DNA of 64,000 bases from Dendrophyllia cribrosa (taxonomy: Eukaryota > Cnidaria > Anthozoa > Scleractinia > Dendrophylliidae), in the NCBI GenBank assembly GCA_024195265.1, contig JAJLRJ010000013.1, positions 17,260,348 through 17,324,347 on the forward strand, given 5' to 3'. Position 1 is the stretch's first letter. Each line of letters opens with the position of its first letter. Below, in pieces: positions 504 to 62,600 of this stretch. The position numbers were made by a program, and so were the translations under genes. The notes below the pieces were generated by a model. It was not told the origin of the DNA and did no database searches. It saw nothing but the letters and a program-made list of their open reading frames with translations.

Positions 504-642
504 TATGGAGCGGCCATCTTGGTGTCCCACTAAGGGACACCAACATGGCGGCCAAAAATTGAAAGAATTTAAAGTCTTAATAACACCGAAAATCTCATCC
601 CAAAATATTGTATTCACTATAAGAGGGATGAAATCGGCTTAT

Positions 643-3057
643 TGCGTCGACGAAGGAGACGCTTCCTAATCTTGTCGGCTAGGCGGAACGAATCGAGAAA
701 AGTGTCGGTACCAAATCTGCGCCATCTTGAAACGTCACAATAGTATCCAGCATGCTTAGCGCGTCGTCTAGGCGGAACAAATCGAGAAAAGTGTCGGTAC
801 AAAATCTGCGCCATCTTGAAACGTCACAATAGTATCCAGCATTCCCAGCGCGTGGAAATCAGGCATCATCCTTGGGAGCTGGGGTTCCGAAATGTCACAT
901 GTGAATAATCTATTTGTCTTGATTTAGTTTCGGATATTTTCCCGATTTTGGAATCGTACGGCTCAATATTTCAATGCCTACTAAAAGTACGAAGTGGAAA
1001 AATTGGACGAAGGTTCATTTCCGGACCAAGTAAGTTGTTGGGTCTCTTTGGAATCAAGCAAGAAGTTATCGGATTTTCCTCGCTACCGTTCTGGTATGTT
1101 TTGAATATTCTATCTTGATTTTGCTGTGGTTCTCTGCCTGATTTGGGAAGCTTTCACCTAAATACCGACGTCGTTCTTCGCGATGTTCTACGGTACGGTG
1201 CAATTCGCTGTATGTCTTGTAGCAATAATTCACTGATCGGCCGCGCCAGGCGAACGCAGATTAACTTTACAATGCTTGAAATTGCGCCTGCATCGGGCGC
1301 ATTTGCGACTAAAGATTTCGCAGTTTTGTGACTAAAATTTGTCTAGCTAATAAAGGAATTATATTCAACAGTCTTTTGTCTTATTTGCAACTGGTAGTTG
1401 TAATTTTATCCGAAAAATCCTGCGAAATTCACGTTGAAAGTTGCGTGACTTAATCGTCGATTTCATGCTCCATTAACGCGGTGTCCAAGAAGTTTATCAA
1501 GGGAGCACTTTTTCAGGCTTTCTCAGAAATTTCTCATTTCCGGTTCCGGTATTAGTACAGTGTACATGTACTGAGGAGTATGATTTCAGAATCGGAGAAA
1601 GAACCGAAATGAAACCAAGAGAAATATACTATTTATATGTCGGAAAAATCTGAGACCTTTCGGAGTACACAGCACGGCAGGATTTTTCCCGACCCACGGC
1701 GATAGCGTGAATTTGTTTGATGTCGGCCCGGCATTTTTGCCTGCGTGACATATCCCGCGACATAGCCTTTTTAAACAGTGGCTGAACTAATTCATGAAAC
1801 TGAGGTACTAGGTCAAGACGAGGTGCCACGGGATAAGGAGACGCACCATAATCTATGATTACTACTAGTATTATTCTTTTTGCGTCGACGAAGGAGACGC
1901 TTCCTAATCTTGTCGTCTAGGCGGAACGAATCGAGAAACAGTGTCGGTACCAAATCTGCGCCATCTTGAAACGTCACAATAGTATCCAGTATGCTTGGCG
2001 CGTCGTCTAAGCGGAGCGAATCGAGAAAAGTGTCGGTACCAAATCTGCGCCATCTTGAAACGTTACAATAGTATCCAGCATTCCCAGCGCGTGGAAATCA
2101 GGCATCATCCTGGGGAGCTGGGGTTCCGAAATGTCACATGTGAAAAATCTATTTGTCTTGATTTAGTTTCGGATATTTTCCCGATTCTGGAATCGTACGG
2201 CTCAAGTACGCAGTGGAAGAATTGGACGAAGGTTCTTCTCCGGACCAAGTAAGTTGTTGGGTCTCTTTGGAATCAAGCAAGAAGTTACAGATTTTCCTCG
2301 CTACCGTTCTGTTATGCTTTGAATGTTCTATCTTGATTTTGCTGTGGTTCTCTGCCTGATTTGTGAAGCTTTCACCTAAATACCGACGTCGTTCTTCGCG
2401 ATGTTCTACGGTACGGTGCAATTCGCTTAAGTCTTGTAGCAACAATTCACTGACCGGCCGCGCCAGGCGAACGCAGATTAACTTTACAGTGCTCGAAATT
2501 GCGCCTGTATCGGGCGCATTTGCGACTAAAGATTTCGCAGTTTTGTGACTAAAATTTGTCTAGCTAATAAAGGAATTATATTCAACAGTCTTGTGTCTTA
2601 CTTGCAACTGGTAGTTGTAATTTTATCCGAAAAATCCTGCGAAATTCACGTTGAATGTTGCGTGACTTAAACGTCGATTTCATGCTCCATTAACGCGGTG
2701 TCCAAGAACAGGCTTTCACAGAAATTTCTCATTTCCGGTTCCGGTATTAGTACATGTACTGAGGAGTATGATTTCAGAATCGGAGAAATAACCGAAATGA
2801 AATCAAGAGAAATATACTATTTATATGTCGGAAAAATCTGAGACCTTTCGGAGTACACAGCACGGCAGGATTTTGCCCGATTCCACGGCGATAGCGTGAA
2901 TTTGTTTGATGACGGCCCGACGTTTTTGTCTGCGTGACATATCTCGCGACATAGCCCTTTTAAACAGTTGCTGAATTAATTCATGAAACTGAGGTACTAG
3001 GTCAAGACGAGGTGCCACGGGATAAGGAGACGCACTATAATCTATGATTACTACTAG
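643..3057. repeat. Two-copy tandem duplication, unit about 1.24 kb
   Basis: The block at 643-1880 recurs at 1881 to about 3057 with small differences; both begin TGCGTCGACGAAGGAGACGC and both end near CTATGATTACTACTAGTA. Each unit opens with an internal direct repeat of about 100 bp (words AAGTGTCGGTAC and ATCTGCGCCATCTTGAAACG). About 280 bp of each unit (near 1250-1540 and 2490-2740) matches, in inverted orientation, the element at 47131-47546, so the unit contains mobile-element sequence. No coding capacity was recognised. Confidence 0.85.
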
Positions 3058-3372
3058 TAAGCATCTATAATTCATTAATAACTTTCAACTAGTTCAATTT
3101 TGTTTATTTTCACGGCTTATCTGAAATAGCGTGACGAATTGCGTGACAGATTTGCAACCTTTATAAATCGAAAATGAAACATCGTTAAAACCTGAAACTT
3201 TTTGTGAAAGATTATAACACTGGTATCCACATACCATGTTAGAAACAGCTTTGTAGGATGTATACTTTAGATTTTTTAATTTTTATGACGTCATGTGAAA
3301 ACACTCTATACGAGATTGGTGGGTTTATTTTAGCACTGAAAATATCTGAAGTCGTCTTTTGCGTGTTTCTAG

Positions 3373-5772: not shown

Positions 5773-6013
5773 CCACAGGGAGCCCACACAATCTGTTTGT
5801 GTAACATAACCGTTTGTAATGTTATAGGAAATGTATGGGATTTACCTAAATTTCATATTATAGCAACGTATCGCCAAATGTATGTACTAATTAACACTAA
5901 ATAAATTACCTTATTTTTTAATCAGTACATACATTCGGCGATACGTTGCTGTAATATGAAATTTAGGTAAATCCCATACATTTCCTATAAAATTACAAAC
6001 GGCTCCCTGTGCC
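5773..6013. mobile_element. Hairpin MITE
   Basis: Arms of about 100 bp are inverted copies (for example GGAAATGTATGGGATTTACC on both strands) with ends CACAGGGAGCC and GGCTCCCTGTG. Non-coding. Confidence 0.65.
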
Positions 6014-9451: not shown

Positions 9452-9988
9452 TTATTCTTGATAAACCCCAAACACCACTCCAACAGCAAACAGTGTTTCA
9501 TTCTTGAAGCTTTCACACACAAATCTATCACAATCCGTGTCCCAAACAGACCGACTGGCTATTCTCACACCCTGGCCTCTGTTCTGTCCGATTGTTACGG
9601 TACAGACAAACTTAAACCGTGAATACTCTAGCAACTTCAAGTCGCTCATTATGGAGTTGGACATTCCTTTTGCGAGCTCTCTGCAGAGTTTAGCATCGTA
9701 CTTTTGTGACTCAAGCGACTGAAGATGTTGAAGGATAATGGCTCTCACCTCAGCCGAGCTGAAACCTTTGTCTGGCCCCATCTTATACGTGTTCTCTGTG
9801 ATCAGTGTTGTTCCTCGCGGACGCGCCGAGGAATACGTAGAACTCTGTTCAACGGAACCAACGGGGCATGAGAAATAAGTCATAACAAAATTCCCTTTTT
9901 GTGGCGGGACTTTCGGTGCTGGGAAGAATAAACTTGAGGCGCTTGAACTGCTTCTGCGAGTTCTGGCGCGAGATACACGCTCATCCAT
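9452..9988 (-). CDS. Tctex1 domain-containing protein (dynein light chain Tctex family)
   Basis: A single-exon gene of 178 codons plus TAA. The first 60 or so residues are Ser/Arg-rich and low in complexity. The Tctex1 domain fills roughly residue 65 to the end: it opens with an ENTYKMGPDKGF segment, has an amphipathic helix with SLESQKYDAKLCREL, and then the strands FKFVCTVTIGQ, SRSVWDTDCDRF and TLFAVGVVFGVYQE that end the fold. The pattern is closest to the TCTEX1D/DYNLT4-5 group, ciliary or axonemal dynein light chains that act as dimers. I chose the ATG at 9988; the frame is open upstream to 10015, but only a GTG is there, unlikely as a eukaryotic start. No introns and no frame damage. 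Its 5' flank is short before the palindrome at 10085. Confidence 0.9.
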   Translation of the reverse strand: MDERVSRARTRRSSSSASSLFFPAPKVPPQKGNFVMTYFSCPVGSVEQSSTYSSARPRGTTLITENTYKMGPDKGFSSAEVRAIILQHLQSLESQKYDAKLCRELAKGMSNSIMSDLKLLEYSRFKFVCTVTIGQNRGQGVRIASRSVWDTDCDRFVCESFKNETLFAVGVVFGVYQE

Positions 9989-10084
9989 GATCACTTGTAC
10001 TTGTACACACGACACAATTTAAGTGCAAAATCCGGCTGCGTTTGAGACAGTCACAACTGAAAAGTGATATCTTTATAGTCTGAT

Positions 10085-25000: not shown

Positions 25001-28000
25001 TTTAACCACTTTCAAGATGGCGGACATTAGAACAAGACACAGACAAAATGCTTTTTTGTTATGGTATTTCATGAGGAACGAAAAAAGACAATTTACAGGA
25101 GTACAAATGTATATAGTGGAGGGAGAAAGCAGTTCATTTACTGCTTTTAAAAAAGAAAAAGTTAAGAGGCACAGAATGTTTGTGCAAGCCATGCTAGCTG
25201 TTGTAAACCAGCCAAGAATAAAAACTAAAAAGTGTTTGGAACTGGATGTCATCTTGAATTTGAACCATAATTCTCAGTGAGCAGAGAAAATTTGGGCACG
25301 GCACCCCTAAAAAATGGGCACAGGGCCACCAATTCACATGGTCTCGGCACCCCTAAATTTTTGGGCACCCGTGCCCAACACATTTCCATTTACACGATAC
25401 AAATTGAGGGTGCTGTGCCAAAAATTTTAGGTACAGGTGCCCAAAGTTAGGGGTGCCGTGCCCAAAACACTTGTCATTTAATCTGGGCTTAAAACTAGTC
25501 CAGTTGAACCTGTCCAAAAATGGACACCTTCATAATTTATGTTAGCACCACTCTGTACCAGGCAGTTCCATTGGTCAAAAGAAACTAAAACTCATGCAAA
25601 TTATTCTTCCTTGTTACAGTGGCCTGGGTCTCTCACCCCAAAGGGGGGGGAGGGGAGGGGGGTAGTCAGGTGCATATGTTGTGGTTTAAATTTTTCTTTG
25701 GTTTAAAAATTTTTCAAACCAGTTTGATTTTGATTTTCCTTTGTCTCAGATTCATTATCATAATGTGACACAAAAGAAAACAAAAATTGAACTGGTTTAA
25801 AAAAATTTAAACCAAAGAAAAATTTGAACCACAACATATATAATAGTGACAGGGACATACACTGTACAAAGACCTTTCGGTCTCTTTTCATTCCTAAACC
25901 GATTAATGAAGCAGGCAAACAAAGTTTTCAATATCAAGGTTCTGTTCTCTGGAACAGCTTGCCTTTGAACGCTAAGATACAGCCCACTCTTAGCTCTTTC
26001 AAATGATGCATTCAATTTTTATCTAATTTAATGATACATGTAGTTAATAAAGGATAGTTTTCATAGTTTTTAGTACATAATCTTGCATAGATAATTAATT
26101 TAGTTAGATAATTTAAGTTAGTTAAGTAATTAATCTATTGTTGTTTAAAAACATGGTTCCATACACCTTATTCATAAAAAAATGGTGGTGGATTTATTTT
26201 TCTTTTGTATTTATTTTAATTAGCCTCACAAGCCTTGTTAGCATGTGCAAAATTCAAAAGAACTTACACGCTAAAATGAGGCTAGTGAGGCAAATTAACA
26301 TAGATATAAAAGAATCATGAATCGGTCTCCATTTATGAATAAGGTGTATCAAAGTTAATATAACAAACTGGTTATGAAACTCAGACAGTCCTTTATTATA
26401 TGTTTTTGTTCTCCACTTCTTTTGTTCATTTGCCTTGACCCTGCACAAAACACAAAAGGTATTGAAATGCATATGAGCAACTGACCAGTAGAAACATTTG
26501 GGCTCACACGTTAAACAAAACAATGTGCAGGGTCACGGTTCATTCAACATAAAACAAAGCAGCTTTGTACACTCTTTTTGAAATTTGTTGAGCTTCATAA
26601 CCAGTTTGTTCTATGGTGTATAGAAGAGCATGTATTATGAATTGACACCGTGTATAAATAAAGTTTACCTACATGTACCTACCTACCTAAAAGTTTACCT
26701 TGGATTTGACATTCTGTGGCGACCTTTTTGTAAAGACTGGGGGTCTACAAAAAGTGTAAACTTTTTCTGCAGAGAGAAATGGGACTTTTGGGGGGTTATG
26801 TTCAATTTGGCCTCACTCGCACAACCCTGTCACTATTATACAATTCAGGTCAGAGATAACTGAACCAAAATATTCACATATAACGTGTCAATTAAATGTG
26901 CACATGTTCTGTGCATTGTCAATGTGCACCAACAACTTGCATTCAGAAAGCTCATTACTATGTATGAGCTAGCTCATTGATAAATTTCCTATTGCTTGTA
27001 TTATTTTCATTGTTGTTTGAATGGCTTGACATGTAGATTTGAGATGAATTTAGAAAGAGATCACATTGCTATTTATCCGGTCCACAATGTAGCAGAGTAC
27101 CCCACTGGGTTTCTCACTTTGATGTTTGTTTTTTAAAACATACATCAAAGTGAGAGACCCAGTGGGTTCCTTCTTCTCCTTCTTTAAAAAGAAGTTGGAC
27201 TAAAAAAAATGTGGTTCTATAAGAAAGCCACATCACCATACATGTAGCTGATTCTCATTTTATCTAATTTGCTGGATCTTGAGGGATAATGGGTCTGTTA
27301 TTTAACTAGTAGTACATGTAGTAGTAGTAGCAGCAGCAGCAGCAGCAGCTGTAGTAGTTAGTAGTAGTAGTACTACTACGGAGAAAACAAATGTTTTCAG
27401 TGATGCGTGACACTTTGGTTAAATCCTAAAGTAAAAAGGTTTAAATCTTTTAGAAAAGTGTCAATGTCATTTAAAACACAAACGTTTCGGGCTGAGCCCT
27501 TCTTCAGTGTGATTTACACATTTTTAAATCACACTGAAGAAGGGCTCAGCCCGAAACGTTTGTGTTTTAAATGACATTGACACTTTTCTAAAAGATTTAA
27601 ACCTTTTTACTGTAGTACTACTACTACTTCTACTACCACTACTACTACTTAATAGCAGTGGCAGTAGCAGTTACAGCAGCAGCAGAAGTAGCAGTAGCAG
27701 TAGCAGTAGAACATGTAGTAGCAGTGCAGTAGTACATGTAGAAGTAGTAGCAGTAGCAGTAGCAGTTACAGCAGCAGTAGCAGTAGCAGTAGCAGTAGCA
27801 GTAGCAGTAGCAGTAGTAGTAACAGTGCAGTAGTAGCAGTAGCAGTAGCAGTAGCAGTAGCAATAGTTGTAGTAGAAGTAGCAGTAGCAGTAGTAGTAGC
27901 AATAGCAGTAGTAGCAGTAGCAGTAGCAGTAGCAGTAGCAGTAGTAGTAGCAGTAGCAGTAGCAGTAGTAGCAGTAGCAGTAGCAGTAGCAGTAGTAGTA

Positions 28001-31000
28001 GCAGTAGCAGTAGTAGTAGCAGTAGCAGTAGTAGTAGCAGTAGCAGTAGCAGTAGCAGTAGTAGTAGCAGTAGCAGTAGTAGTAGCAGTAGCAGTAGCAG
28101 TAGCAGTAGTAGCAGTAGCAGTAGCAGTAGTAATAGCAATAGCAGTAGTAGCAGTAGTAGTATGAACCCAGATATAATTATATGACTGTCATTAACAATG
28201 CTGATGAACATCTCTTTAGCCCTGTGTTCTCTGGCCTGTTTGATTTCTGTTCTATCTACACTGGTGCATCACTAGAGGGTGCCGTGAGGCTTAATCAAGG
28301 GGTATGTGGTTAGGTTTGGATAAAGAATAAGAATGAACTTTTAATAGTAATCATACAAAAATTGTATGTAAAATTTATATAATGTTATGGTTCAAATTTT
28401 TCTTTGTTTTCAAAAAATTATTTTCAAACCAGTTTAATTTTTATTTTCCTTTCTCTCAGATTCATTATCAAAAATCAACCTGGTTTGAAATTTTCAAACC
28501 AAAGGAAAAATTTGAACCATGCAGTGACAACATATCCAATGTTGTTTTAAAAGAAACTGGGAAATGGAGTCTCGATGATGCTGTAAAAAAAAAACTTTTT
28601 ATTTCTTTTTTTTTTTTCAAGCCATGAAGAACAACTTTAGAGAGTAGATCTTAATATTTTTGATGTTATTATGGCATTGTCATAATTTACAGATGTACTA
28701 ATATTAATTTTCTATAGTATAAAGTTCATTTTCTTGAAGCTATTTAACACTCCTTTATAATTATAGTTACAAATAGAATTGTGTGTTTTTCCAAAATCTT
28801 GTATTTGTTTTATGTCCATTGAAGTATATTTTTACTTGCAAGCTTGTTAAGGCCTGTTTACACATACAATTTTTTAAGCGATTTTTGAACATATTTGCAC
28901 TCTCCAATGCCACTTTTGTTGCAAGTGTAAACTAGCGGCAATTTCTGTGTGAGTCAGGTGCGAGATTGATTTTTTCTGCGATTTGCTCTGATTTCCCAAA
29001 AACCACTGCCAAGTTGCCCGCCAACAAATCGCGCCCAAATCGCATTGGAATTGCCGCTAGTTTACACAGACAATTTGAAAATGCAGCTTGCACGTGGCGA
29101 AAATTACATTGAAAAGTGCACCAAAAGTTGCACAAAAAATTAATTGTGTAAATGGGCCTGTAAGACATGTACAGTATATGTTTCACATGTCCATGTTACA
29201 GTAGTGAATTGAAGTTTACAAGTTGTTTTTTTTTTGTTTATTTGATTTGTGTAACAGGTTTGTGATATTGCTGTCAACTGGGCAGGAGGGCTACATCATG
29301 CCAAGAAATGTGAAGTGAGTGATTACAATGTATTACAAAATCTGACTTCCAAAATGGGACTTACAATATAATTATATATTTGTAAGACAATGGGAGGAGG
29401 GCTTGAATAGCATACATTGTAATAAAAATAAGGAGATGAAGTCCAATACATGTAAAAATGGTTACCGGTAGTTGACAGATTCATCCAGAGTTTTAAAATT
29501 TCAAAAATTGGGGAAAAAGGATTCCTGGTTGTTGTATTTTGAACTTAGTTGATAACACTTAGAGTGAGCTCTTCATGGGTGTTTTGAGATAATACATGTA
29601 TATATAGATAGGCTTAGCCATCATATCACCTAATTATTCAAAATTGAAACCTTTTTAAATGGACCCCAAAAATGCACAATATACATGTAGACCAGAAAAC
29701 AGCTTCAATAGTTATTGCCCAAAGACAAAATCAGGTATAAAAATAATCACTTAGCTCTATATCCCTCCAAAAACGCTTGACCACAGAGTTACGCAGCCAC
29801 AAATGCAGTCTTGAACACTGTTTGAGAAATGTCAAACCTGTCTTGAGTAGCAAACTGTGAAAAAAATGCTGATAAAAATGATATGGCAAACCGTTTTCTT
29901 CACTAAACACACCAAGAGTGTTTACTGTAGCTGATGTTGCATCGGCCGTGTAGCTGCGGGAAGCATGTGAAAAGCCTTGTTTTGGTTTCCAAATTCCTAA
30001 AAACCCAGAGTTGCACTACATCATACGCGCTTGTTATGAGAGCTATGCAAACTTGTAAAAGTTGTAGATCAGATCTACATGTACAGCTGTAGCAGAAAAA
30101 AAAAATTGCTCCCGAATTGTACAGTGTACATGTATGCTTAATATATGCTTTGTTAATTTGTTGCCATGCAGGCATCAGGCTTCTGTTATGTGAATGACAT
30201 TGTGGTTGCAATCCTGGAACTGCTTAAGTGAGTATTCTACTATTAATATTAATTCCTACACAATATTAGGGGAGCAGGGATGGCGCAGTGGTGAGAGCAC
30301 TTGCCTCCCACCAATGTGACCCGGGTTCGATTCCCGGAGGCAACACCTTATTGTAAAATGCTGGTTATACATGTAAGTTAGTACATTGTGTACATGTAAG
30401 CCCATGGCTTATACGACTTTGTAAGTAAGCAAAAAAAATATTGTGATAAATAAGCGTGAAAATTCAGTGCAAGTTTTTATAGAGAATTGCTGTTAACCCT
30501 TTACTCCCTAAGGCAAATGCCACTTTTTTTCCAAATGTCCATGTATGATATACCATTTTAAAGCTATTGCTCAGTGTATTTCACAAAACATATCAGCATC
30601 TGTAAAGGAAGTTATGGTTTTGATAGAAATGGGTTTTAAACGTAAAAATAAAAAAGTTCATTAACATCATACTCTTCGTATATATAATATTAGTTACACC
30701 CTTTAACTATTAATAGCTCATTTTGAAGCTTTTAATACATACATGTACATTAATATGAGATAAGTCTTGGACTACACACATTGTACATGAATGTGTAAGG
30801 AAAGAAATGTTGAAAAGTTGTAGGGGTGGTCAACCATGCCATGTATAGGAGGGGGTCATGATTTTATGCCTTTGTTGGGTAGATCTTTACAAGATGATTT
30901 TGGTGGCAAAAATTCATAGAAATCTACCAAATATTGAGCAAGTTATGGCATTATGTGCCAATTGGCACTCTTAGGGAGTAAAGGGTTAAGGAACTGTGAT

Positions 31001-35637: not shown

Positions 35638-35995
35638 TATACACCCAGGAGCCCTCCTGATACACCTTATATACCGTATATAGGGTATATCAGGAGGGCT
35701 CCTGGGTGGCACCCAGGAGCCCTCCTGATACACCCTATATACACCCAGGAGCCCTCCTGATACACCTTATATACACCCAGGAGCCCTCCTGATACACCTT
35801 ATATACACCCAGGAGCCCTCCTGATACACCTTATATACACCCAGGAACCCTCCTGATACACCTTATATACACCCAGGAACCCTCCTGATACACCTTATAT
35901 ACACCCAGGAGCCCTCCTGATACACCTTATATACACCCAGGAACCCTCCTGATACACCTTATATACACCCAGGAGCCCTCCTGATACACCTTATT
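35638..35995. repeat. Tandem repeat, 32-bp unit
   Basis: About ten units of ACACCCAGGAGCCCTCCTGA followed by TACACCTTATAT. Each contains the near palindrome CAGGAGCCCTCCTG. An inverted unit near 35670-35705 breaks the first copies. There are no unique spacers, so it is not a CRISPR array. Confidence 0.9.
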
Positions 35996-39892: not shown

Positions 39893-40061
39893 GGCCATTT
39901 CCGAGTTACGTTATGCCTCGTTGTCAAAGCGAGGCTAGGTGCACAACCTTTCATATGGAAATGATTTTAATTTGCATTTGAATAAAAACTCATTTCCATA
40001 TGAAAGGTTGTGCACCTAGCCTCGCTTTGACAACGAGCCATAACGTAACTCGGAAATGGCC
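39893..40061. mobile_element. TA-flanked hairpin MITE
   Basis: Arms of about 75 bp, almost exact inverted copies (GGCCATTTCCGAGTTACGTT), with TA on both sides and a central TTTTAATTTGCATTTGAATA loop. Confidence 0.8.
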
Positions 40062-42200: not shown

Positions 42201-42936
42201 TAAGGGACGGACCATTAGAAAAGTGATTGGGGGGGGGGGGGGGGGGGGGGGTGGGGAAAAAAACAAAAAAAAAATTCGTGCAAGGGAAAATGCCAGGAAA
42301 AAAAATTCGTGCAAAGTTCAAGGTAAAGAAAACAAAATTCATGCAGAAGGAGAAGTCCTATTGTAGTTGTTATTTAATATATTGCTATTATTGTTATTAT
42401 TGTTGTTATTGTTATATTGTTGTTATTTAATATATAAAAGCTGCCAAAGTGCCTATTGAAAATAGCGCTCTTGGCGTTTCAAAAATTCAAAACATTCTTG
42501 GGGCCTTCCTATACTATTATTTATAAATAGTATTATAAAGGTGACAGGCCAAACACGACTCCCGCTAGTCGCAAAATGTATAAAGAAGCCTTTAGAAATG
42601 CTTTCCCAAGAAGGTCTACGAGATATTTGTTCCCTTTAGATCACCAATATAGAATTGTGACTTGTCACTATTATCTCTGTCTCAGTTTTGCATGCTCGAT
42701 ATGTATTGTATGACTCTTTGATGATCTTTGGGATAAAAATCTCTTAAGTGACAGGAGATTTTCATGCTGTGTAGCCATTTATGGAATTATTGTTTCTCTA
42801 TGCCTTCGTTATGCTAGCTCTCTTGGCATATGTTAGGGCTTCTTTGGCTAACTTTTGTTGCAAGATATGTAGTGATCGGCTGCAGTTTTTGTTATTGTTT
42901 TGAATATGCTAGGATCAGTCAATCTCTCAGCCCGTG

Positions 42937-43091
42937 CAGGGGCGTAGCTACCTGTACGCACGTACGCACGTGCGTACCTGAAAAAGTCGGGAAAAAAGAA
43001 AGATTTGGGACTTGAGGGTGGGGGAGGAGGTAGGGGGAGTGTTTGGAAATTGACTGTGCGTACCTCTGAAAAATTCCTGGCTACACCCCTG
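42937..43091. mobile_element. hAT-like MITE, 155 bp
   Basis: Ends CAGGGGCGTAGCTACCTG and CTGGCTACACCCCTG with CCGTG duplicated (42932-42936, 43092-43096). CAGGGGCGTAGC ends are common among animal hAT elements. Confidence 0.8.
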
Positions 43092-43230
43092 CCGTGATTT
43101 AGTGTTAAAGTCTGCGGTGTGCAAGACTTGTGAGAAAGTGGATCTTTATCACGGATGTAGGCGTCTAAGATCAAAGTCTGAAGCTGCCGTGTCTCTATTG
43201 GAATCATGACTTCTTGCAGTTTATGTTTTA

Positions 43231-43516
43231 CAGTGGCGGATCCAGGGGGAGGGTGGGGGGGGGGGGGGGGGGGGGGGGTCCGGACCCCCCTTTCCGACCT
43301 GTGTCTCCCTTGTGGTTCAAAAATAATAGAATAAAATTGTTTTATACGCAGTTGTTTCACCTCCACCAATTGACTGATTGTCAATTTTTTGACTTAACAA
43401 ACGCTTTTCGAGTTTCAGGAGTGCTGGAAATGGCGTTTCAGAGGGTAAAATTGGAAAAATTTCCGGGCAGGCATGAACCCGGACCCCCCTTTCAGAAATC
43501 CCTGGATCCGCCTCTG
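43231..43516. mobile_element. hAT-like MITE with G tract, 286 bp
   Basis: Ends CAGTGGCGGATCCAGGG and CCCTGGATCCGCCTCTG with TTTTA duplicated (43226-43230, 43517-43521). A G run (about 43256-43279) lies near the left end and CCGGACCCCCCTTTC occurs near both ends. Confidence 0.8.
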
Positions 43517-43675
43517 TTTTAGCTCCTTGTTTTATATATAGTTCTGTTTCTGAGAAGTGTTTCTTGGAGCTTGAAGAACCTCCGTTGTTTCATCATGGCG
43601 TTATTGCATCCCGACATGGCTTAAACAGATATGATGATCTGTATTGAAAATCTCACGGACGCTAGTGAATTCTTA

Positions 43676-43745
43676 CGTTTTTCTTAAGCAAGACTCGAGT
43701 TTCGGTTCTTAGGTGAACCTCATCAGTTGCTCCCATAAGTAACTG
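43676..43745 (-). ncRNA. Hammerhead ribozyme, type I, best-formed copy
   Basis: Minus strand: AGCAA, CTGATGA (43720-43726), a GGUUC/GAACC stem II, GAAA (43700-43703), stem III ACU-CG-AGU, then C (43692) as the predicted cleavage base, then UUGCU pairing with AGCAA. Beyond an internal loop, CUUAU and GUAAG extend stem I. All invariant core positions are present. It lies inside the 42204-44322 element. Confidence 0.75.
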
Positions 43746-44609
43746 TCTCGCGGAATAATATGAAATTATTCCGTTGTACATGAAATGTTTGCCGCTTTTG
43801 TACTCTTGGGAAGGATCGAATGTTCCGTTTTCTCATTGGCTCGTTTAATTGAACCAATAGCATTGGTGTAGTTTCGATCCGACGTTAAGTTGTGTTTCTT
43901 TCTGAGGCTTTATTCTTAATTTCATAGCATGTATGATATTTTCTGACACAAAGAACAGTTCTTTTAGTGTTGTAGAGAGGAGGTCTCGTGTATGTCTCAA
44001 TGAATTCAAGATACACTGCATATTTTTTCTACAACAGGCGTGTAATTCTGGTGTCAAGTTGTGTTTGCTTCATGCGTTCCATAATAGGATATAGTCTTGT
44101 GCAACGTAGCGGACTATTCCTAATATATATTTTTCAAATATACGTAATGGTCAAAAATGGTTTTTAAGTATTACACCTTTTTTTTAATTAGTAAATGAAA
44201 AACAAAGCAATATTTGTCTGTCACCTGCAAAAAAAAAATACTGCACAAGCAATGGGCGAAAAAAAAATTCGTGCAAGCTGAAAATCCCCCACCCCCCCAT
44301 CACTTTTCTAATGGTCCGTCCCTAAGTCAGCATTTGTTTAAGTGTTACTTGGTGGGGAAGGTGGCGCGATTTTTTTTTATCCAATCGTAAAGCGTAGCTA
44401 TGCAAAACCAAAGCAAGAATGAATAACTCTGAGAAACACTTGAAAATCGCCCTATCCCATTATTTATTATTTTTTTATTTCTGTATTTCATTTTTTCTTT
44501 TTCATTCTCTCTCATTTGAGTTTCGTTACCAGGCCCCAATTGCGCTCGGTTTCAGTGCGAAAATGGCGCCACTGGAGAACATGATCAGTCGATCAGAACA
44601 TAGTTTATA

Positions 44610-46127: not shown

Positions 46128-49100
46128 ATTATCTTGTGAAAATGGCAGTAAATTGCTAAACTGGTTATCACCTTCCCCAGGGGTACCCGGGTTGTGATCA
46201 TTCTGGTTATCCTGAAAATAACACAATGAAACAGTGATGCTTCTGGGGAGGAGAGGGTAGAGGTGGTTGGTGTGGGGAAAAGAGGGTAGGTGGCTGGTGT
46301 GTGGGAGGAGAGGGCAGAGGTGGCTGGTGTGGGGGAGGAGAGGGCAGAGGTGGCTGGTGTGGGGGAGGAGAGGGCAGAGGTGGCTGGTGTGGGGGAGGAG
46401 AGGGCAGAGGTGGCTGGTGTGGGGGAGGAGAGGGCAGAGGTGGCTGTTAAGGAGGGTAGAGGTGGCTGGTGTGGGGAAGGAGAGGGAAGAGGTGGCTAGT
46501 GTGGAGGAGGAGAGGGTAGAGGTGGCTGGTGTGGGGAAGGAGAGGGAAGAGGTGGCTAGTGTGGAGGAGGAGAGGGTAGAGGTGGCTGGTGTGGGGGAGG
46601 AGGAGGGATTTGGGAGAACAATGTAGACTGTGTACAAGGGGTACTTTCAAATGTTCTTTACTTCCATCCAGTTTGTCTTTAAGATTTTTATACATGGTGA
46701 TAAACAAACCACCACTAAATTATTCTGAGGGCATTTCAGGAAAACAAGCCCAAGGGACCATGTGTTCATGAGGTTCATAGCATGACATTTATACAGAGGA
46801 GAATGGTGTGATAATTCAACATCACAGTGCCATGCTAACCTTAGGCAAACCATCCATATCAGGATTTGTATCTGAGAGAAAAAAGGAAACAAGACATAAA
46901 TATATATGTTTCATTCAGGCAACAAATATTTCTGTTTGCAAGAATAAGCAGAAAACACATGCAACACTACAAGGTACAAATCCATATTGGCTAGTTTTGC
47001 CAAGACCAATCGATGATGAACATTATGTATGCATTTAAAAGTAAAATTTGCACTTTTTAATCACAAGTCAAAATAATATGAACTTATTGATTGAATAGGA
47101 GGGTTGGTCACGAAAATATGTGGCTCAAGGCAGGGCTCGAAATTAAAAAAAAATTCTCCATCGCAATTTGCGATTAATTCCTAAAATTTAGTCGCAAGTT
47201 CAAAAATTTTAGTCGCAAAAAAAAATCGCAATTACAGCAAAGGAACCGGAACCGGAAATGAGAAATGAGAAATTTCTGAGAAGGTCTGAAAAAGTGCGCC
47301 CATGATATACTTCTTGGAAACCACGTTAATGGAGCATGAAATCGACGATTAAGTCACGCAACATTCAACGTGAATTTTGCAGCATTTTTCGGATAAAATT
47401 ACAACTACCAGTTACAAGTAAGACACAAGACTGTTGAACATAATTCCTTTATTAGCTAGCAAGGCCGTAAAACGGTCGCAAAATCGCAACTAATAGACAA
47501 ATTTTAGTCGCAAATGCGCCCGATACAGGCGCAATTTCGAGCCCTGCAAGGTCATGGCGTACTGACCAAGCACAGTAGTTTGTGTACAACAAGACTGAAA
47601 GCAAATGATTTTCCTATCCATCCTGGCCCCATAGCTTATTGTTACGTTTGAATTTTAATTGCAAAATACAATGTCCTTGTGAACACTCTATGATAGTTAA
47701 CAATGATTAACAGCATTAAATGAATTTCAAGATGACATGTGTGGAGCTGGACCTGGCTAACAGCAATCTGCTGTTAGCCAGTGTCAGCTCAGCTCCAGGG
47801 TAGTTGATTTGGAAGGCTTACCGTTCATAACAAGAGGGGCCTCCTGGGCTCCAAGTGATAATGGGGGCTCTGGGGCACCTCCCATGTACTGAAACAAAAA
47901 AAAAAGTTTTGTACATTGACTGCATTTAAAGAGAAGAGAAATGAAAACACAGGCAGACATAGAAACACAGGTCAGTCTGGCACTGGATTATAACAAGTCA
48001 TGGTAGTTAATTTCTCCACATGTATCTTAACAACTCCAAGATAACACATCACGCTTGCAACCTCGGATAAACTTGAATATTTCAAGCGTTTTGCAACAAA
48101 TGTTTGAGTCGTCCAAGTGATTGTTCTGATGACAACTGATGCTGTACATACCTTTTTAACTGAATATATACGCAAATGCTATGCCAAGCATTTACATCTT
48201 CTCAACTACACATATTAACAAATAAATAATAAATTTCAGCACAATGCTCAGGGTTTCCCCATATTTTCTTCATCAACTGTTGCATTTCTGTATACAGGAG
48301 TAACAGTGTGGCACATGGCCAACAGTCCTTCATTACATTGTGTTACATAGTAACAACCCTTACAAGTATCACAAGTTCAACAAACAAATGTTGAATCTTT
48401 ATTATTCTTTCATTATTATTGTTTTTCCAGAAAATATCCATACACCTTCCATGGAAGTTTTTTTATTTAAACCCCCACCCCTCTGGAAATTCCAATTTAG
48501 CTTCATACTTTCCTCAGGGCTTCTGATAGGGTGCAATAAAAAAATGGAAATTATGTGATTTTTTCAAAGCAAATTATGCGATAAGAAAGGACTATTATGT
48601 GGAAAATTATGCAAATTATGCGATTTTTTCTGGAGCTTTTTTATGTATGTTTTACAAGGTTTCAGAGGAAGAAAAACACTTTTATGCTATATCAGCAATT
48701 CTGATTTGTCAACTCACAGAAAAGGATTGTTTTTGCCGTACTAATAGGCAATGGCTTTAGAATTAAATTTAGTACCAGGCCTCGCCCGCGCAGACAAGCA
48801 AATAACGCCTTGGAGATCGATCTTTAACAACATTGAAGGTTGAAAGGTTTCTAAGTTTTTGAGAGGTAAAATCACCTTGAAATAATGTGTATCTTCGGAT
48901 GTTTTTTAGCCAAAGAAATAATTTATAGTCTGTTTTGTTTAAATTGTGTGATTTTTCATGAATTATGCAATTTTTTGGGAATTATGCGATCGGATGCAAT
49001 TTGAGGCTGATTATGCGAAATTGCACCATCGCGTAATATATCAGAAGCCCTGTTTCCTTTAAAAATTAATTGGCTTTTGAGACCCACTTCTCCCATGGAA

Positions 49101-53698: not shown

Positions 53699-56600
53699 CC
53701 CCACACATAAATAATGACCGGTCCCTAAAGTTTCACTTGTACTGCAGTACAAAAAGTAATCCTTCCCAGACAACATATCCATGGAAATAAGGACATGCAC
53801 AAGTCAACACAAAATACATCAAAGATCAAAAGGATTTACATAGTAAATGAACAAATCTAACATCCCAAATAATGAATGCAACTGTGCTCTAACAGATCAT
53901 GGACAAGATGCCAACATAAAAGCTTTATAAGTTATTGTACCTGGTACTGCTTACTGAAAGACAACAAACAATCCTTTCTACTTAGCTTCTTACCGATGTT
54001 GTGGGATTCCACGGTCTACTGCCAGGCCTATTAAGAAAGGCAAACACACAATTAAAGACAGTGAAGAGTTAAAATTTTATTCAGTAAACTGGATATAAAC
54101 CTTCAAAGCTTATTACAGGGATTCTGACAGGGTGCGGGGAAAAAACAAAAATTGTGCGGGAGTTTTGAGGCAAATTGTGCGGGAAATAACGTCGATTGTG
54201 CGGGAAATTGTGCGGGATTGCGCAATCCTGTGACCAACCAAATATCAATCACCAGTGTTCTAGCCAGGCCAGAAAAATATGTCAGGGAGGAAATTCTGCA
54301 TAAATGAAAAATACAAATAGATGTTTTACTTTGGGGATTAAAATGTACCCAGCAATCGCCAATTTGCGGCTGTTTTTCTTTGCCAAAGTTTATTTGTCTC
54401 AACAAAATCACATTGCGTGACACGATGAACTCGATCGGGTAAAACCGAAATACCACATTTAAATGACATGTTTCCGATCTGTTGCGAGTTCCTTTATGAA
54501 AAATCCGTACATTTTATGTAGTTTGAATAATTTCCATTAAAGGTTCACACAATTTCTTCGAAAGTTTGCCGCAAAAACACAACCTCGAGATGTATGCAAA
54601 TTGTGTGCTAAATGTAATTTGATAGCATGTTTGTTTTGCATTTTCCTGAATGAAAACGTCTTTCACTTGATTGAAAAAATCAAATCCAGTATTCTGATCA
54701 TAACTTAATAATTTTCTCCTATCAATCCGAAGTTCCAGCGCTTTAATAGTTTGTTTGTCGATTCGCAAACTTGATAAGTTCTTTGCGAAAATAATTCAGA
54801 CAGTGACATTCATTTCGGCGTGACCGGGTACCTTCGATGTTTCTTCTTCGGTCCCCGACATATTAAACTGAAAGAGGATGCGAAGCGCTGGGAAAAAATA
54901 TCAACAGGCCGCTAAGAAAAACGACATAATGTCTGAAAATCGACAACTAAAAAGCTACGCGAAAAAATCTGTAGGAAGTCGGAAAGAAGTAAAACTGAGA
55001 CTTATAAGTTCCCAGGACGGCGAAGAGAACGTCTTGTTGTTGTTATATCGATCCTCTCGAACTGTTCAAGGAAAGCGAGGGTTTTCTCGATTGTTTGGAA
55101 GGAAAATGGGCTGAAAATAGCCTAAAACGTTTCTCGAAATCATGGTAATCAATAGAAATACCTGATTTAATTAACATTTTAATCAAATATTTCAGTATTG
55201 TGCGGGATTGTGCGGATTTTTAGGAATTGTGCGGAATTGTGCGGGTTTGACCGAATTGTGCGGTCCCGCACCCGCGCATCCTGTCAGAATCTCTGTTATT
55301 ACAAACACTTTATGGCTATAAACATGGTTGGCATGTAGTAATGGGCACATATCACACAGGGTTGACCAATTTTTTTTGTCTACCAAAGATTATAGCCAAA
55401 TAATTATTGTGCTTTGCTGAATATGATAAAGTGTTTCCATTCATTGGATAATCATTTGTGTACATGTTGTATGCTAGTGTATAATATCTATTGAAAGAAG
55501 AGATTGAAGATAATGACATTACACGACTTAAATCCTATGCATAACAAACAAAGCATTATTTTGTAACTGAAAACTTAAATCCCATTGTAATAATTCATTT
55601 GGCACAACAGTCAGTTTAACCTGGTTTCTGTAGCGTGAAGTATCACTACTAACCACATACATACATATCACATCTACATGTATAACGTTAAACAAAGCAA
55701 AGGAATGATCAAGCAAATTTGAATTTAAATTATTATCAAAATTAAAAAAAAAAATTAAAATCAGTGTCCAGGTATTTTTTAAGGCTTACATTGGCATGTT
55801 TACCCCAGGTGCTACTGAGCTGTTAGGCGGAGGTCGCATTCCACCATAGTTCTACAGGTAAGAAAAACAACTGGATCAGAAATTATCCTATCAAGTGAGT
55901 AAAAATGCATTATTATTTTGTAGAATATTAGAATATTAATTTGCTTACTGGTGGAACTGCAACTCGGGGGTGATTCATTCTGCTCATCTGCATGGGCTGG
56001 CCTACAATTAATGGGTATATCATAAAAACATAGCAAAAAGTTGAAAACACTGACATTCGTTTTACAATGTTATCTTAAGCTTTACAGGCCGTTTCACTGC
56101 AGTGTACGGAGATGGGTTTTTCAAGCATGATTCGCTGGCTATGATTTGCCTGTCCTCATAATCTGTCCAAGCTAAGACAATGGGGAAGGAATTTACCCAT
56201 AACATAAGTTCAAAGAGTAAAATACTTACTTCGTGAAATAGATCTGTGAATTTTCTGACAATGGGCAAATTATCGTGACGGAAAAATCGTGACCAGCTAA
56301 TCATGACATTCAAATCATGGTAGGTGAATCATAACTGGTGAATCACGTTTGAAAAACATGGTGCTTTCAGTGCAAGTTGTACTGAGATCATTATGGATTT
56401 TTTATATTTTAGGAACTCAACATTATACTCTGTGAACTCGAGCTCAGTATATGCACATATGATCTTCATGATTGTCTGATCATGGGCAGATCATGGGCAG
56501 ACCATGATGGGTGAGTCATGTTTAAAAAAACCCGGGTCTGTACACTGCAGTGAAATCGGCTGTGACAGGGCTCAAAATAACAGCCGGTCAACGGACAATG

Positions 56601-59600: not shown

Positions 59601-62600
59601 AAATGGATGTCACAGCATTTTGTGTTAAATTAATTGGTGAATGTATCAGGGACAAGCCCCTGAATATATTTGATAACTAATTGTTTTATGTGTTCCTCTC
59701 GTCACTCTGATAATGTTCCATCCCAGACAACTAATAATGGCATCACTTGGAAGGTCCCGTGAATTCTCGAGGATTATTCTGCCTGCTCGTCTTAAAAATC
59801 GTTCAATAAATACAAGTCAAACCCACAAAGCCCTCAAAATGGTTTGAAACCAATTTAAAATAATAAGACACTACAAAGACTTGAGCAGAAAATGGCTGAC
59901 ATGCTGGGCTGACATTAGTAGCTGCCAAAAGTAGTGAAGATGAGTGAATTTTAATAATTTATGGTCAAATGACAATACCCATGTAAGGCCACCCTCGTGT
60001 GTTCTATGTTCACAAGTTATGAATTTGTTAAGACTGTGTAAAATTGGCTAGCCGCAATGTCTAGCTGGGTAAACTTTTCACCATATTTGTGGAACAGGAA
60101 TTGCCTCCCATTAATGTGGCCTGGGTTTAACTCCTGAATTTGACATCAGATGTAGATTGTGTTTGTTGTTGGTTCTCATGATCCATGCTCTTCTTCTTTC
60201 CTTATAAGAATCAACTACTCAAAAATCTAATTTGATCTGTGATCACAGAAAACAGGTTTACTGGTCTTTTAATGACTGTGAAGTGTCACCCTTATAACAA
60301 AGTTGATTTATTTGATTGTTTTATTGATTATAATGAGTTTCTTACCAAAACTACATTGTAAGAAAAGTACAAAGCTTTAACTCCATACAAATTATTGCAT
60401 AAAATTAATTTTGGAAAGTTTAATTTTTGCAAACCTTCAACAATATGTGAAAATTAAAAAATATATAAAAACAACATGAAAATAAAAGGCCTTTAAGGGG
60501 ATGTTGTAGTTAATTTTTTATCTCAGGTATTTTTTGTTTTTCCATTGTTTTTGGGTATGGTAATATATGCTAATGAATTTGAAACAAAGGAAAAACAAAA
60601 ATTACCTGAAATGAAAAATTAACTACAACAGGGGATGATGAGGAGCCTGAGCTGCTTCAAGGCTTAACTACACTGCTAACGTAACACAATACATGTCAGA
60701 AAAAAAAGTTATCTAAAGATTTCCTTGGATTAGCATGGTGGGGAGGGTGAATGTTTTTAAAGATAACTCAATATCTGTTGCCAAATTACCTGGCCTGGTA
60801 TCCTGACATTTGGTGGTCTGTTTGTCGCTGGGTTATATCTGGACATACCATATGGTGTCTGTAAAAACCAAGTGCAAACACGCAATCAGTTCTCTTATCT
60901 TGTCACCATGAGAGACAGAAAGAGAAGACACTGTGCATAGGTTACCAGAAACCCATAAGTGGGTTGAAATGTGCAACTGTCTCTTGTATGCTTCAAAACA
61001 AGCTTCCGATTATTCAATTTGCTAAGAACTTGTTACAGCCATATTTGGAAAATCAAGATAAAAATATTAACCAATCAATTTGCTAGAACGACTTGCTTCC
61101 AATCTCAAGGGACCAAGGGGTTTCCAAATATGGTACTAAGCAAAAAATGAATATTCGGCAGCTGTGAATGCGCGTTACACGTTTCAACCCACTTATGGGT
61201 TTCTCATGTTATGTATCATTACTCTCTGTTAATATGCAGGTTTCTCATTCTTTTATTTATTATATACATTATGAAATATAGACTGAAAATAACATTTGTT
61301 TGTAGTCAATTGTAAGGGTCTCATTACAATTCTGAACCCTATCTATCTTTTAAGACAAATAAGGCATTGTTACTACAGGGATTCTGACAGGGTGTGGGGA
61401 AAAAACTAAAATTGTGCGGGAGTTTTGATGCAAATTGTGCGGATAATAACGTCGATTGTGCAAGAAATTGTGCGGGATTGCGCAATCCTGTGACCAACCA
61501 AATATTCAATCACCAGTGTTCTAGCCAGGCCAGAAAAATATGTCAGGGAGGAAATTCTGCATAAATGAAAAATACAAATAGATGTTTTACTTTGGGGATT
61601 AAAATGCAAAAGCAATCGCCAATTTGCGGCTGTTTTTCTTCACCAAAGTTTATTTGTCTCAACAAAATCACATTGCGTGACACGATGAACTTGATCGGGT
61701 AAAACCGAAATACCACATTTAAATGAAATGTTTCCGATCTGTTGCGAGTTCCTTTATGAAAAATCCGTACATTTTATGTAGTTTGAATAATTTCCATTAA
61801 AGGTTCACACAATTCTTCGAAAGTTTGCAGCAAAAACACAACCTCGAGATGTATGCAAATTGCGTGCTAAATGTAATTTGATAGCATGGTTTTGCATTTT
61901 CCTGAATGAAAAAGTCTTTCAGTTGATTGAAAAAATGAAATCCAGTATTCTGATCAGAACTTAATAATTTTCTCCTATCAATCCGAAGTTTCAGCGCTTT
62001 AATAGTTTGTTTGTCGATTCGCAAACTTGATAAGTTCTTTGCGAAAATAATTCAGACAGAGTGACATTCATTTCAGCGTGACCGGGTACATTTCTTCGGT
62101 GTTTCTTCTTCGGTCCCCGACATATTAAACTGAAAGAGGAAGCGAAAGCGCTCGCAAAAATATCAACAGGCCGCTAAGAAAAATGACATGTAATGTCTGA
62201 AAAACGACAACTAAAAAGCTAGGCGAAAAAATCTGTAGGAAGTCGGAAAGAAGTGAAACTGAGACTAGTTCCCAGGACGGCAAAGAGAACGCCTTGTTGT
62301 TTTTATATCGATCCTCTCGAGCTGTTCGAGGAAAGCGAGGGTTTTCGATTGTTTGGAAGGAAAATGGGCTGAAAATAGCCTAAAACGTTTCTCGAAATCT
62401 TGGTAATCAATAGAAATACCTGATTTAATTAAAATTTTAATCAAATATTTCAGTATTGCGTGGGATTGTGCGGATTTTTAGGAATTGTGCAGGTTTGACC
62501 GAATTGTGCGGTCCCGCACCCGCGCATCCTGTCAGAATCCCTGTTACTAATAAACTGCTGGTCCCCAGCTCCGAGGTGTATATTTTACCCATCTGTAATG

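What the first reader, a model, noticed from the sequence alone, without database searches (positions are those of the whole stretch)
43676..43745. Well-formed type I hammerhead ribozyme on the minus strand
All invariant boxes are present: CTGATGA, a paired stem II, GAAA, a 3-bp stem III with a 2-nt loop, and a cleavage C. Stem I pairs AGCAA with UUGCU, then has an internal loop and a second helix, as in natural fast-cleaving hammerheads. The minimal stem III is the form known from Penelope-like elements and retrozymes.
Basis: partly seen in the sequence, partly recalled or inferred. Interest (0 to 1): 0.78.

Follow-up and report, generated by a model that had tools for sequence, protein, structure and literature searches.

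The report
Coral hammerhead ribozyme inside DNA transposon
The window holds a real copy of a self-cleaving RNA motif of a kind that corals are known to carry in the thousands, and this copy sits in a dispersed non-coding repeat that rides inside a cut-and-paste DNA transposon.

Summary
The motif is real: a minimal type I hammerhead at 43686-43732 on the minus strand, cleavage C at 43692. Its 35-nt core (two loop letters free) occurs 248 times in the source genome, the reversed pattern 0 times, so it is not chance. The DNA is stony-coral-like, and corals are known to hold thousands of type I hammerheads (PMC7229834), so the motif itself is ordinary. (1) Stem III cannot be 3 bp with a 2-nt loop; it is the 8-nt palindrome ACUCGAGU, suited to a dimer. 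The outer stem I helix is unproven. (2) The motif belongs to a dispersed non-coding element of about 1.13 kb (E1). In seven copies of a diverged subfamily, stem I, not in the search pattern, matches at 83 of 84 letters, flanks at 49-62%. (3) This E1 copy is cargo in a 2,119-bp non-autonomous transposon with 24-bp inverted ends and a TTA duplication (PIF/Harbinger type), 44322-42204. 15 of 19 checkable transposon copies keep the core. No Penelope coding sequence was seen in the neighbourhood scanned; the genome was not searched for one. Cleavage is untested.

The parts
43686..43732 (-). Type I hammerhead ribozyme: stem I 43732-43727/43691-43686, CUGAUGA 43726-43720, stem II 43719-43715/43708-43704, GAA 43703-43701, palindromic stem III 43700-43693
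   Evidence: core 248 times in the genome, reversed control 0
43692..43692 (-). Predicted cleavage nucleotide C17 (cut between 43692 and 43691)
   Evidence: Position relative to the conserved core; cleavage not tested
43693..43700 (-). 8-nt palindrome ACUCGAGU, stem III, able to pair between two RNA copies
   Evidence: best two-strand fold is an exact double hammerhead, -30.5 against 2 x -11.3 kcal/mol; but 126 of 300 shuffles gain as much energy
43672..43739 (-). Possible outer stem I helix CUUAUG (43739-43734) / CGUAAG (43677-43672) across a 1 x 8 internal loop
   Evidence: inconclusive: 30 of 400 flank shuffles do as well, and several copies with a perfect hammerhead lack it
42529..44113 (-). 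E1, the dispersed non-coding hammerhead-bearing element, about 1.13 kb once the two nested inserts and their duplications are left out
   Evidence: homology of diverged loci stops near these limits
43231..43514 (-). Nested insert 1 (hAT-like short inverted-repeat element, type by eye) flanked by TAAAACA duplications 43521-43515 and 43230-43224
   Evidence: site empty in 11 of 11 older loci probed
42937..43091 (-). Nested insert 2 (inverted ends CAGGGGTGTAGC/GCTACGCCCCTG) flanked by CACGG duplications 43096-43092 and 42936-42932
   Evidence: site empty in 10 of 11 older loci probed, the eleventh (L060) aligns on one side only
42204..44322 (-). Non-autonomous PIF/Harbinger-type transposon, 2119 bp, carrying E1 as cargo
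   Evidence: inverted ends GGGACGGACCATTAGAAAAGTGAT; 22 of 27 sequences show both ends, 20 of 22 a matching TTA/TAA duplication
44299..44322 (-). Left terminal inverted repeat
42204..42227 (-). Right terminal inverted repeat
44323..44325 (.). Target-site duplication TTA, left
42201..42203 (.). Target-site duplication TTA, right

Best explanation
The motif is a genuine minimal type I hammerhead that belongs to E1, a dispersed non-coding element of about 1.13 kb in this coral genome. Its ribozyme has been kept while the rest of E1 diverged. A copy of E1 became cargo inside a PIF/Harbinger-type transposon, took two small insertions, and was multiplied by cut-and-paste transposition; the window holds one such copy. 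Inferred mechanism: two E1 RNAs, or two units of one tandem transcript, pair through the ACUCGAGU palindrome and through stem I to form a double hammerhead. It cuts after C43692 and leaves a 2',3'-cyclic phosphate and a 5'-OH, ends that can be ligated or copied by a reverse transcriptase supplied in trans. In the solitary window copy cleavage is expected to be weak and the ribozyme is probably a passenger. Shown here: sequence, copies, conservation, nesting, transposon ends and duplications. Inferred: cleavage, dimer use, reverse transcription, passenger status.
For: Core and stems read directly; 248 cores, reversed control 0. In 7 E1b copies stem I is identical at 83 of 84 letters although it was not in the search pattern, while flanks are 49-62% identical. 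In 11 group rows the hammerhead differs at 23/517 letters against 89/1063 and 139/1352 in the flanks. Transposon: both ends in 22 of 27 sequences, TTA/TAA duplication in 20 of 22. Empty sites of both inserts in older loci. Best two-strand fold is the double hammerhead. Intact tandem copies exist: 4 of 5 units of L080. Right end near 42522-42538 in 11 of 20 loci with varied left ends suggests a reverse-transcribed origin. Literature: minimal type I hammerheads with palindromic stem III are proposed to act as dimers (PMC3088659, PMC7761336, passages).
Against: No cleavage or expression data. Rfam score far below gathering. Monomer fold disfavoured. The dimer energy gain is not special: 126 of 300 shuffles gain as much. 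No compensatory change in stems I-III. Loci for one search were found with a query covering the hammerhead; copies for one search were found by an exact core, E1b copies without it were not counted, and exchange of a short stretch between subfamilies would give the same picture. A left-out E1b-like locus, L084, has one stem I change that leaves 2 bp. 8 of 20 fetched exact cores lack stem I. In 9 of 20 loci homology to E1 stops before its right end. No target-site duplication was recognised for E1. No transposase was identified; the Harbinger label rests on ends and duplication.
Confidence: 0.72

Rival explanations
1. E1 is the non-coding end (pseudo-LTR) of a Penelope-like retroelement, and the hammerhead is that element's ribozyme.
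For: Minimal type I hammerheads sit in Penelope pseudo-LTRs, and Penelope copies lie in tandem or partial tandem (PMC7761336, PMC11167929, passages). E1 shows varied left ends, one tandem array and head-to-head pairs.
Against: No Pfam domain at E 0.01 in 65 of 66 longer frames at 36.5-57.6 kb. Among frames over 110 aa in L080-L083, the only reverse-transcriptase-like one (L083) reads by eye as LINE type and lies beside a transposon copy. The genome was not searched for Penelope genes.
Confidence: 0.3
2. E1 is a large-unit retrozyme: tandem copies are transcribed, cut by the hammerhead into units of about 1.1 kb, circularised and copied back.
For: The L080 array has 1456-bp units with an intact core in 4 of 5. 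Coral retrozymes make circular RNAs (PMC7229834, coral results and discussion read).
Against: No two of the 100 listed cores (of 248) lie closer than 600 bp. None of 20 fetched loci has a second core on the same strand within about 800 bp. Published coral units are 220-240 bp. The one array carries a roughly 280-bp insert beside the hammerhead.
Confidence: 0.2
3. The transposon uses the ribozyme, for example to cut read-through or antisense transcripts crossing it, so the hammerhead is a working part of the DNA transposon.
For: 15 of 19 checkable transposon copies chosen by another part keep the exact core; 40 of 40 scored copies, the window included, are identical over 141 bp.
Against: The 40 are the best-scored of 754 candidates. 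At a few per cent divergence many copies would keep 33 letters by chance alone. The monomer form is weak.
Confidence: 0.1
4. Chance resemblance to a hammerhead.
For: Fails the Rfam threshold; the bare core pattern turns up in 9 of 100 shuffles.
Against: 248 copies against 0 for the reversed pattern; conservation stops at the ends of stem I; 1 hit in 400 simulated windows once stems are required.
Confidence: 0.01

Closest known systems
Metazoan (coral) non-LTR retrozymes with type I hammerheads (Cervera and de la Pena 2020, PMC7229834)
   Same: Stony coral host, type I hammerhead, non-coding repeat; that paper reports more than 6000 motifs in 16 families in Acropora millepora.
   Different: Published coral units are 220-240-bp tandem repeats; E1 is about 1.13 kb, solitary in the places examined except one array, and here carried by a DNA transposon.
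Minimal type I hammerheads of Penelope-like elements and Terminons (as described in PMC7761336 and PMC6431247, passages; primary papers not held)
   Same: Very short stem III, dispersed solitary motifs, dimer activity proposed.
   Different: No Penelope coding sequence seen near this copy; stem III letters here form an 8-nt palindrome.
Repeat-type hammerheads with palindromic stem III (Perreault et al. 2011, PMC3088659, passages and Figure S8 legend)
   Same: Palindromic stem III able to pair fully in a dimer; Nematostella and Aedes are named as possibly requiring dimers.
   Different: The carrier element is not described in the passages read.
Non-autonomous PIF/Harbinger DNA transposons (definition recalled)
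   Same: TTA/TAA duplications, inverted ends beginning GGG.
   Different: Carries a hammerhead-bearing element as cargo; no transposase linked to it here.

Membership tests
Type I hammerhead, minimal variant | Invariant core C3 U4 G5 A6 N7 G8 A9, G12 A13 A14, A15.1-U16.1, H17 (list in PMC3088659) | tested here: met
Type I hammerhead, minimal variant | Stems I and II paired, stem I the open one, very short stem III | tested here: met
   6 bp and 5 bp; stem III 2 bp in the monomer or an 8-bp palindrome between two copies
Type I hammerhead, minimal variant | Self-cleavage at H17 | not testable with these tools
   Needs transcription in vitro
Type I hammerhead, canonical (fast-cleaving) class | Stable stem III in the monomer | tested here: not met
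Type I hammerhead, canonical (fast-cleaving) class | Contact between stems I and II beyond the core | tested here: inconclusive
   Outer helix here and in close relatives, not in all perfect copies, and not above shuffled flanks in most
Rfam hammerhead families | Score at or above the gathering threshold | tested here: not met
   0 hits; best 19.5 against 52 bits
Metazoan retrozyme | Tandem units of 150-450 bp bounded by hammerheads | tested here: not met
   Single core in the window; 0 pairs under 600 bp among 100 of 248 places; 0 of 20 loci, same strand
Metazoan retrozyme | Circular RNA | not testable with these tools
   No RNA data
Penelope-like element | Reverse transcriptase with GIY-YIG endonuclease | tested here: not met
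   For this copy only: 0 Pfam families in 65 of 66 longer frames at 36.5-57.6 kb; no genome-wide search
PIF/Harbinger-type DNA transposon (non-autonomous) | 3-bp TTA/TAA target-site duplication | tested here: met
   20 of 22 copies with both ends, window included
PIF/Harbinger-type DNA transposon (non-autonomous) | Terminal inverted repeats | tested here: met
   24 bp, perfectly inverted in the window copy
PIF/Harbinger-type DNA transposon (non-autonomous) | Autonomous partner with Harbinger transposase sharing the ends | not tested
   No search was made for it

The most novel reading that the evidence does not exclude
A hammerhead-bearing RNA element has switched carrier: it now spreads through a cut-and-paste DNA transposon that multiplies the ribozyme, and the copies' transcripts meet and cleave one another as dimers in trans, so the ribozyme works in a DNA transposon context.
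Probability: 0.12. Interest if true: 0.72.

Novelty: new variant of a known kind. Interest (0 to 1): 0.47.

Why it matters
The thousands of solitary minimal hammerheads in animal genomes have no agreed role. This case ties one family to a defined element, shows between two subfamilies a conserved stretch that stops at the ends of the ribozyme although the copies seen are mostly solitary, and shows that part of the copy number comes from a DNA transposon rather than from the ribozyme's own life cycle. Counts of genomic hammerheads may therefore include passengers. The two subfamilies give a direct comparison set for testing what the minimal form does.

Tried and rejected
Rfam scans of the window and of five related loci reached no hammerhead threshold. 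A viral-contig pattern scan found one contig without the palindrome, a stricter one none, and a profile of the frame through the hammerhead found no relatives there. Ten prokaryote contigs matched a looser core pattern; none has both stems I and II (0-4 and 0-2 bp). Pfam on 65 frames gave nothing. Idea dropped: L098 and L100 break exactly at the cleavage C, which looked like a reverse-transcribed cleavage product; the break is an inverted-repeat insert of about 445 bp with related sequence going on beyond it. Idea dropped: an unusually stable dimer; shuffles gain as much. A first guess of a lone hAT-like neighbour was replaced once older loci showed it nested in E1. Mended on re-checking: I had written that the outer helix is not conserved; one search shows half of the E1b flanks can form another 5-bp pairing, though shuffles often do too, so it is now inconclusive. 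The count of intact cores is 15 of 23, not 14.

Full report
Observation. The minus strand at 43732-43686 reads GAGCAA CUGAUGA GGUUC ACCUAA GAACC GAA ACUCGAGU C UUGCUU. It has every invariant hammerhead letter, a 6-bp stem I, a 5-bp stem II and the cleavage C at 43692. The bare core pattern is not rare (9 of 100 shuffles have a match). A descriptor with stems finds one match in the window; in 400 simulated windows it gave 20 hits with stems of at least 3 bp, 6 with at least 4 bp in stems I and II, and 1 with at least 5 bp and the exact core. Rfam reports nothing at gathering, 19.5 bits to Hammerhead_HH9 against a cut-off of 52, E 4.2 over the whole window. Of five related loci scanned, L083 and L080 are listed at 19.5 and 18.8 bits and L063, L067 and L069 are not listed, so that test is uninformative for this short form.

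Structure. A 3-bp stem III with a 2-nt loop is not an allowed hairpin. The monomer hammerhead with a 2-bp stem III costs -7.0 kcal/mol against a best fold of -11.3; its predicted share of the ensemble is at most about 1 in 7000 in six contexts (approximate). Stem III is an 8-nt palindrome. The best fold of two copies is exactly the double hammerhead, -30.5 kcal/mol, and so it is for L083, L069, L067, four of five L080 units, L068 (core broken) and L063; it is not for L071/L074-L078/L082, L061/L065, L066 and L072. The energy gain is not unusual: 126 of 300 shuffles gain at least as much. The outer stem I helix: of 14 distinct flank pairs around a perfect hammerhead, the window type, L083, L069 and L087 form CUUAUG/CGUAAG and two L080 types 5 bp of it; four E1b types form a different UACAU/GUGUA; L067, L086/L093, L088 and L101-L103 form neither as their best pairing. 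Flank shuffles do as well in 30 to 195 of 400. Inconclusive.

Host and first relatives. A Tctex-type dynein light chain frame at 9455-10018 matches named Montipora (84%), Acropora (81%) and Oculina (79%) proteins best, sea anemones at 46-55%, so the DNA is from a stony coral; the species is not known. A meaningless frame through the hammerhead has 13 relatives in unnamed ENA contigs, the first sign of a dispersed repeat. By my reading, 4 of the 13 cannot encode an intact core (P0030, P0035, P0038, P0041).

Genome. The window lies in a held 627-Mb genome. The 141-bp hammerhead query gave 754 candidates; the 40 scored, the window's own among them, are all identical. The 35-nt core with two free loop letters occurs 248 times (131 + 117), the reversed pattern 0 times. 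Of the 100 places listed, the loop is ACCUAA in 66, ACCUUA in 24 and ACCAAA in 10 (my count).

Carrier. Of eight loci fetched, seven share a nearly continuous stretch of up to 2.1 kb with the window, bounded by inverted repeats; L012 shares only pieces. Of 27 sequences examined for both ends (window, L013, L014, L016-L019, L040-L059), 22 show them and 20 of the 22 have matching TTA or TAA duplications; L040 and L051 do not. L018/L019 and L044/L045 share flanks, so independent insertions are fewer. L012, L015 and six copies seen only were not in that count. This is the signature of a non-autonomous PIF/Harbinger transposon (definition recalled). The window copy is 44322-42204.

Older element. 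A search with P0034 (150 of 1002 candidates scored) brought 20 loci, two of which overlap (L061, L065). They align to parts of window 44113-43515, 43230-43092 and 42936-42529. Probes across the joined flanks of the missing stretches match unbroken in 11 of 11 older loci at site 1 and 10 of 11 at site 2, so those stretches are nested inserts with flanking duplications. The rest, E1, is about 1.13 kb and without long frames. Homology ends at 42522-42538 in 11 of 20 loci and earlier in 9; left ends vary. L080 (7 kb read) holds tandem 1456-bp units of E1, 99.4-99.7% identical, in head-to-head arrays; 4 of 5 have an intact core. L083 shows the transposon's right part (77% identical) and neither insert, which suggests that E1 entered the transposon before them.

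Constraint. Among 23 hammerhead rows (duplicates L061 and L074 left out) the core is intact in 15, window included; six of these are one family with two broken stem II pairs, and stems I-III show no compensatory change. In 11 group rows the hammerhead differs from the window at 23/517 letters, the flanks at 89/1063 and 139/1352 (Fisher p 0.005 and 3e-5, letters not independent; the loci came from a query covering the hammerhead; rows with fewer than 45 aligned hammerhead letters and further copies of two families were dropped). The cleaner test is subfamily E1b. All ten listed ACCAAA loci were fetched; L087 proved close to the window type, L091 a near-duplicate of L090, and L084 shares only a short stretch. 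In the other seven, stem I, which was not in the search pattern, is identical to the window at 83 of 84 letters, while four flank stretches are 49-62% identical. L084 would add 11 of 12, but its one change leaves only 2 bp of stem I. Exchange between subfamilies could give the same picture.

Solitary copies. None of the 100 listed cores lies within 600 bp of another, and none of 20 fetched loci, picked from the two rarer loop types, has a second core on the same strand within about 800 bp. Stem I is intact in 12 of those 20; the other 8 are fragments or interrupted, so a core match does not mean a working ribozyme. None of the 20 shows the transposon's ends. For transposon copies chosen by another part (40 scored of 345 candidates), 19 could be checked against the listed places and 15 keep the core. 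At a few per cent divergence that does not show selection.

What is known. PMC7229834 (abstract, introduction, coral results, discussion read) reports more than 6000 type I hammerheads of 16 families in Acropora millepora: 1508 canonical ones, found within 220-240-bp retrozymes, the rest minimal and resembling Penelope or Terminon ones. PMC7761336 (passages) calls the role of the minimal ones a mystery. PMC3088659 (passages) describes palindromic stem III and dimers. PMC11167929 (passages) finds cleavage of a Penelope hammerhead not needed for insertion in vitro. Two library searches for hammerhead ribozymes with Harbinger, or with DNA transposons and terminal inverted repeats, listed three papers. 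Of two I saw the hammerhead passages, which speak of Terminons and Penelope elements only (PMC6431247, PMC12477314); the third I saw as a listing (a drug-resistance review). Most subscription papers are not held.

Verdict. The ribozyme motif is real and of a known kind. New here, as far as those searches go, are the carrier element, the sharp limits of conservation between its subfamilies, and its passage inside a DNA transposon. Activity and role remain inference.

Noticed in passing
L001:11660-11760: IMG/VR contig with a hammerhead-like core (CUGAUGA-GGUUC-AAAA-GAACC-GAAA); flanks show no likeness to E1 by eye.
   Followed up: no
L080:1-7001: Head-to-head tandem arrays of 1456-bp units of E1, each with a roughly 280-bp insert just after the hammerhead flanked by a 17-bp repeat.
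   Followed up: partly
L098 and L100, just after the core: An inverted-repeat insert of about 445 bp lies exactly at the hammerhead cleavage site.
   Followed up: partly
L094-L097, L099: Another repeat family begins its shared stretch exactly at the C of CUGAUGA, without the 5' strand of stem I.
   Followed up: no
L083:3484-5759: Endonuclease/reverse-transcriptase-like frames beside a transposon copy (LINE type by eye).
   Followed up: no
window 9455-10018 (-): Tctex-type dynein light chain coding frame.
   Followed up: partly
window 638-3059; 54110-55298 and 61370-62546: Large repeats: adjacent copies at 92% and a dispersed pair at 94% identity.
   Followed up: no
window 35710-35994; 27653-28160; 46245-46607: Tandem arrays with 32-, 6- and 30-bp units.
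   Followed up: no
window 27471-27570; 39920-40033; 5848-5964: Long inverted repeats that draw sub-threshold microRNA matches; perhaps small inverted-repeat transposons.
   Followed up: no
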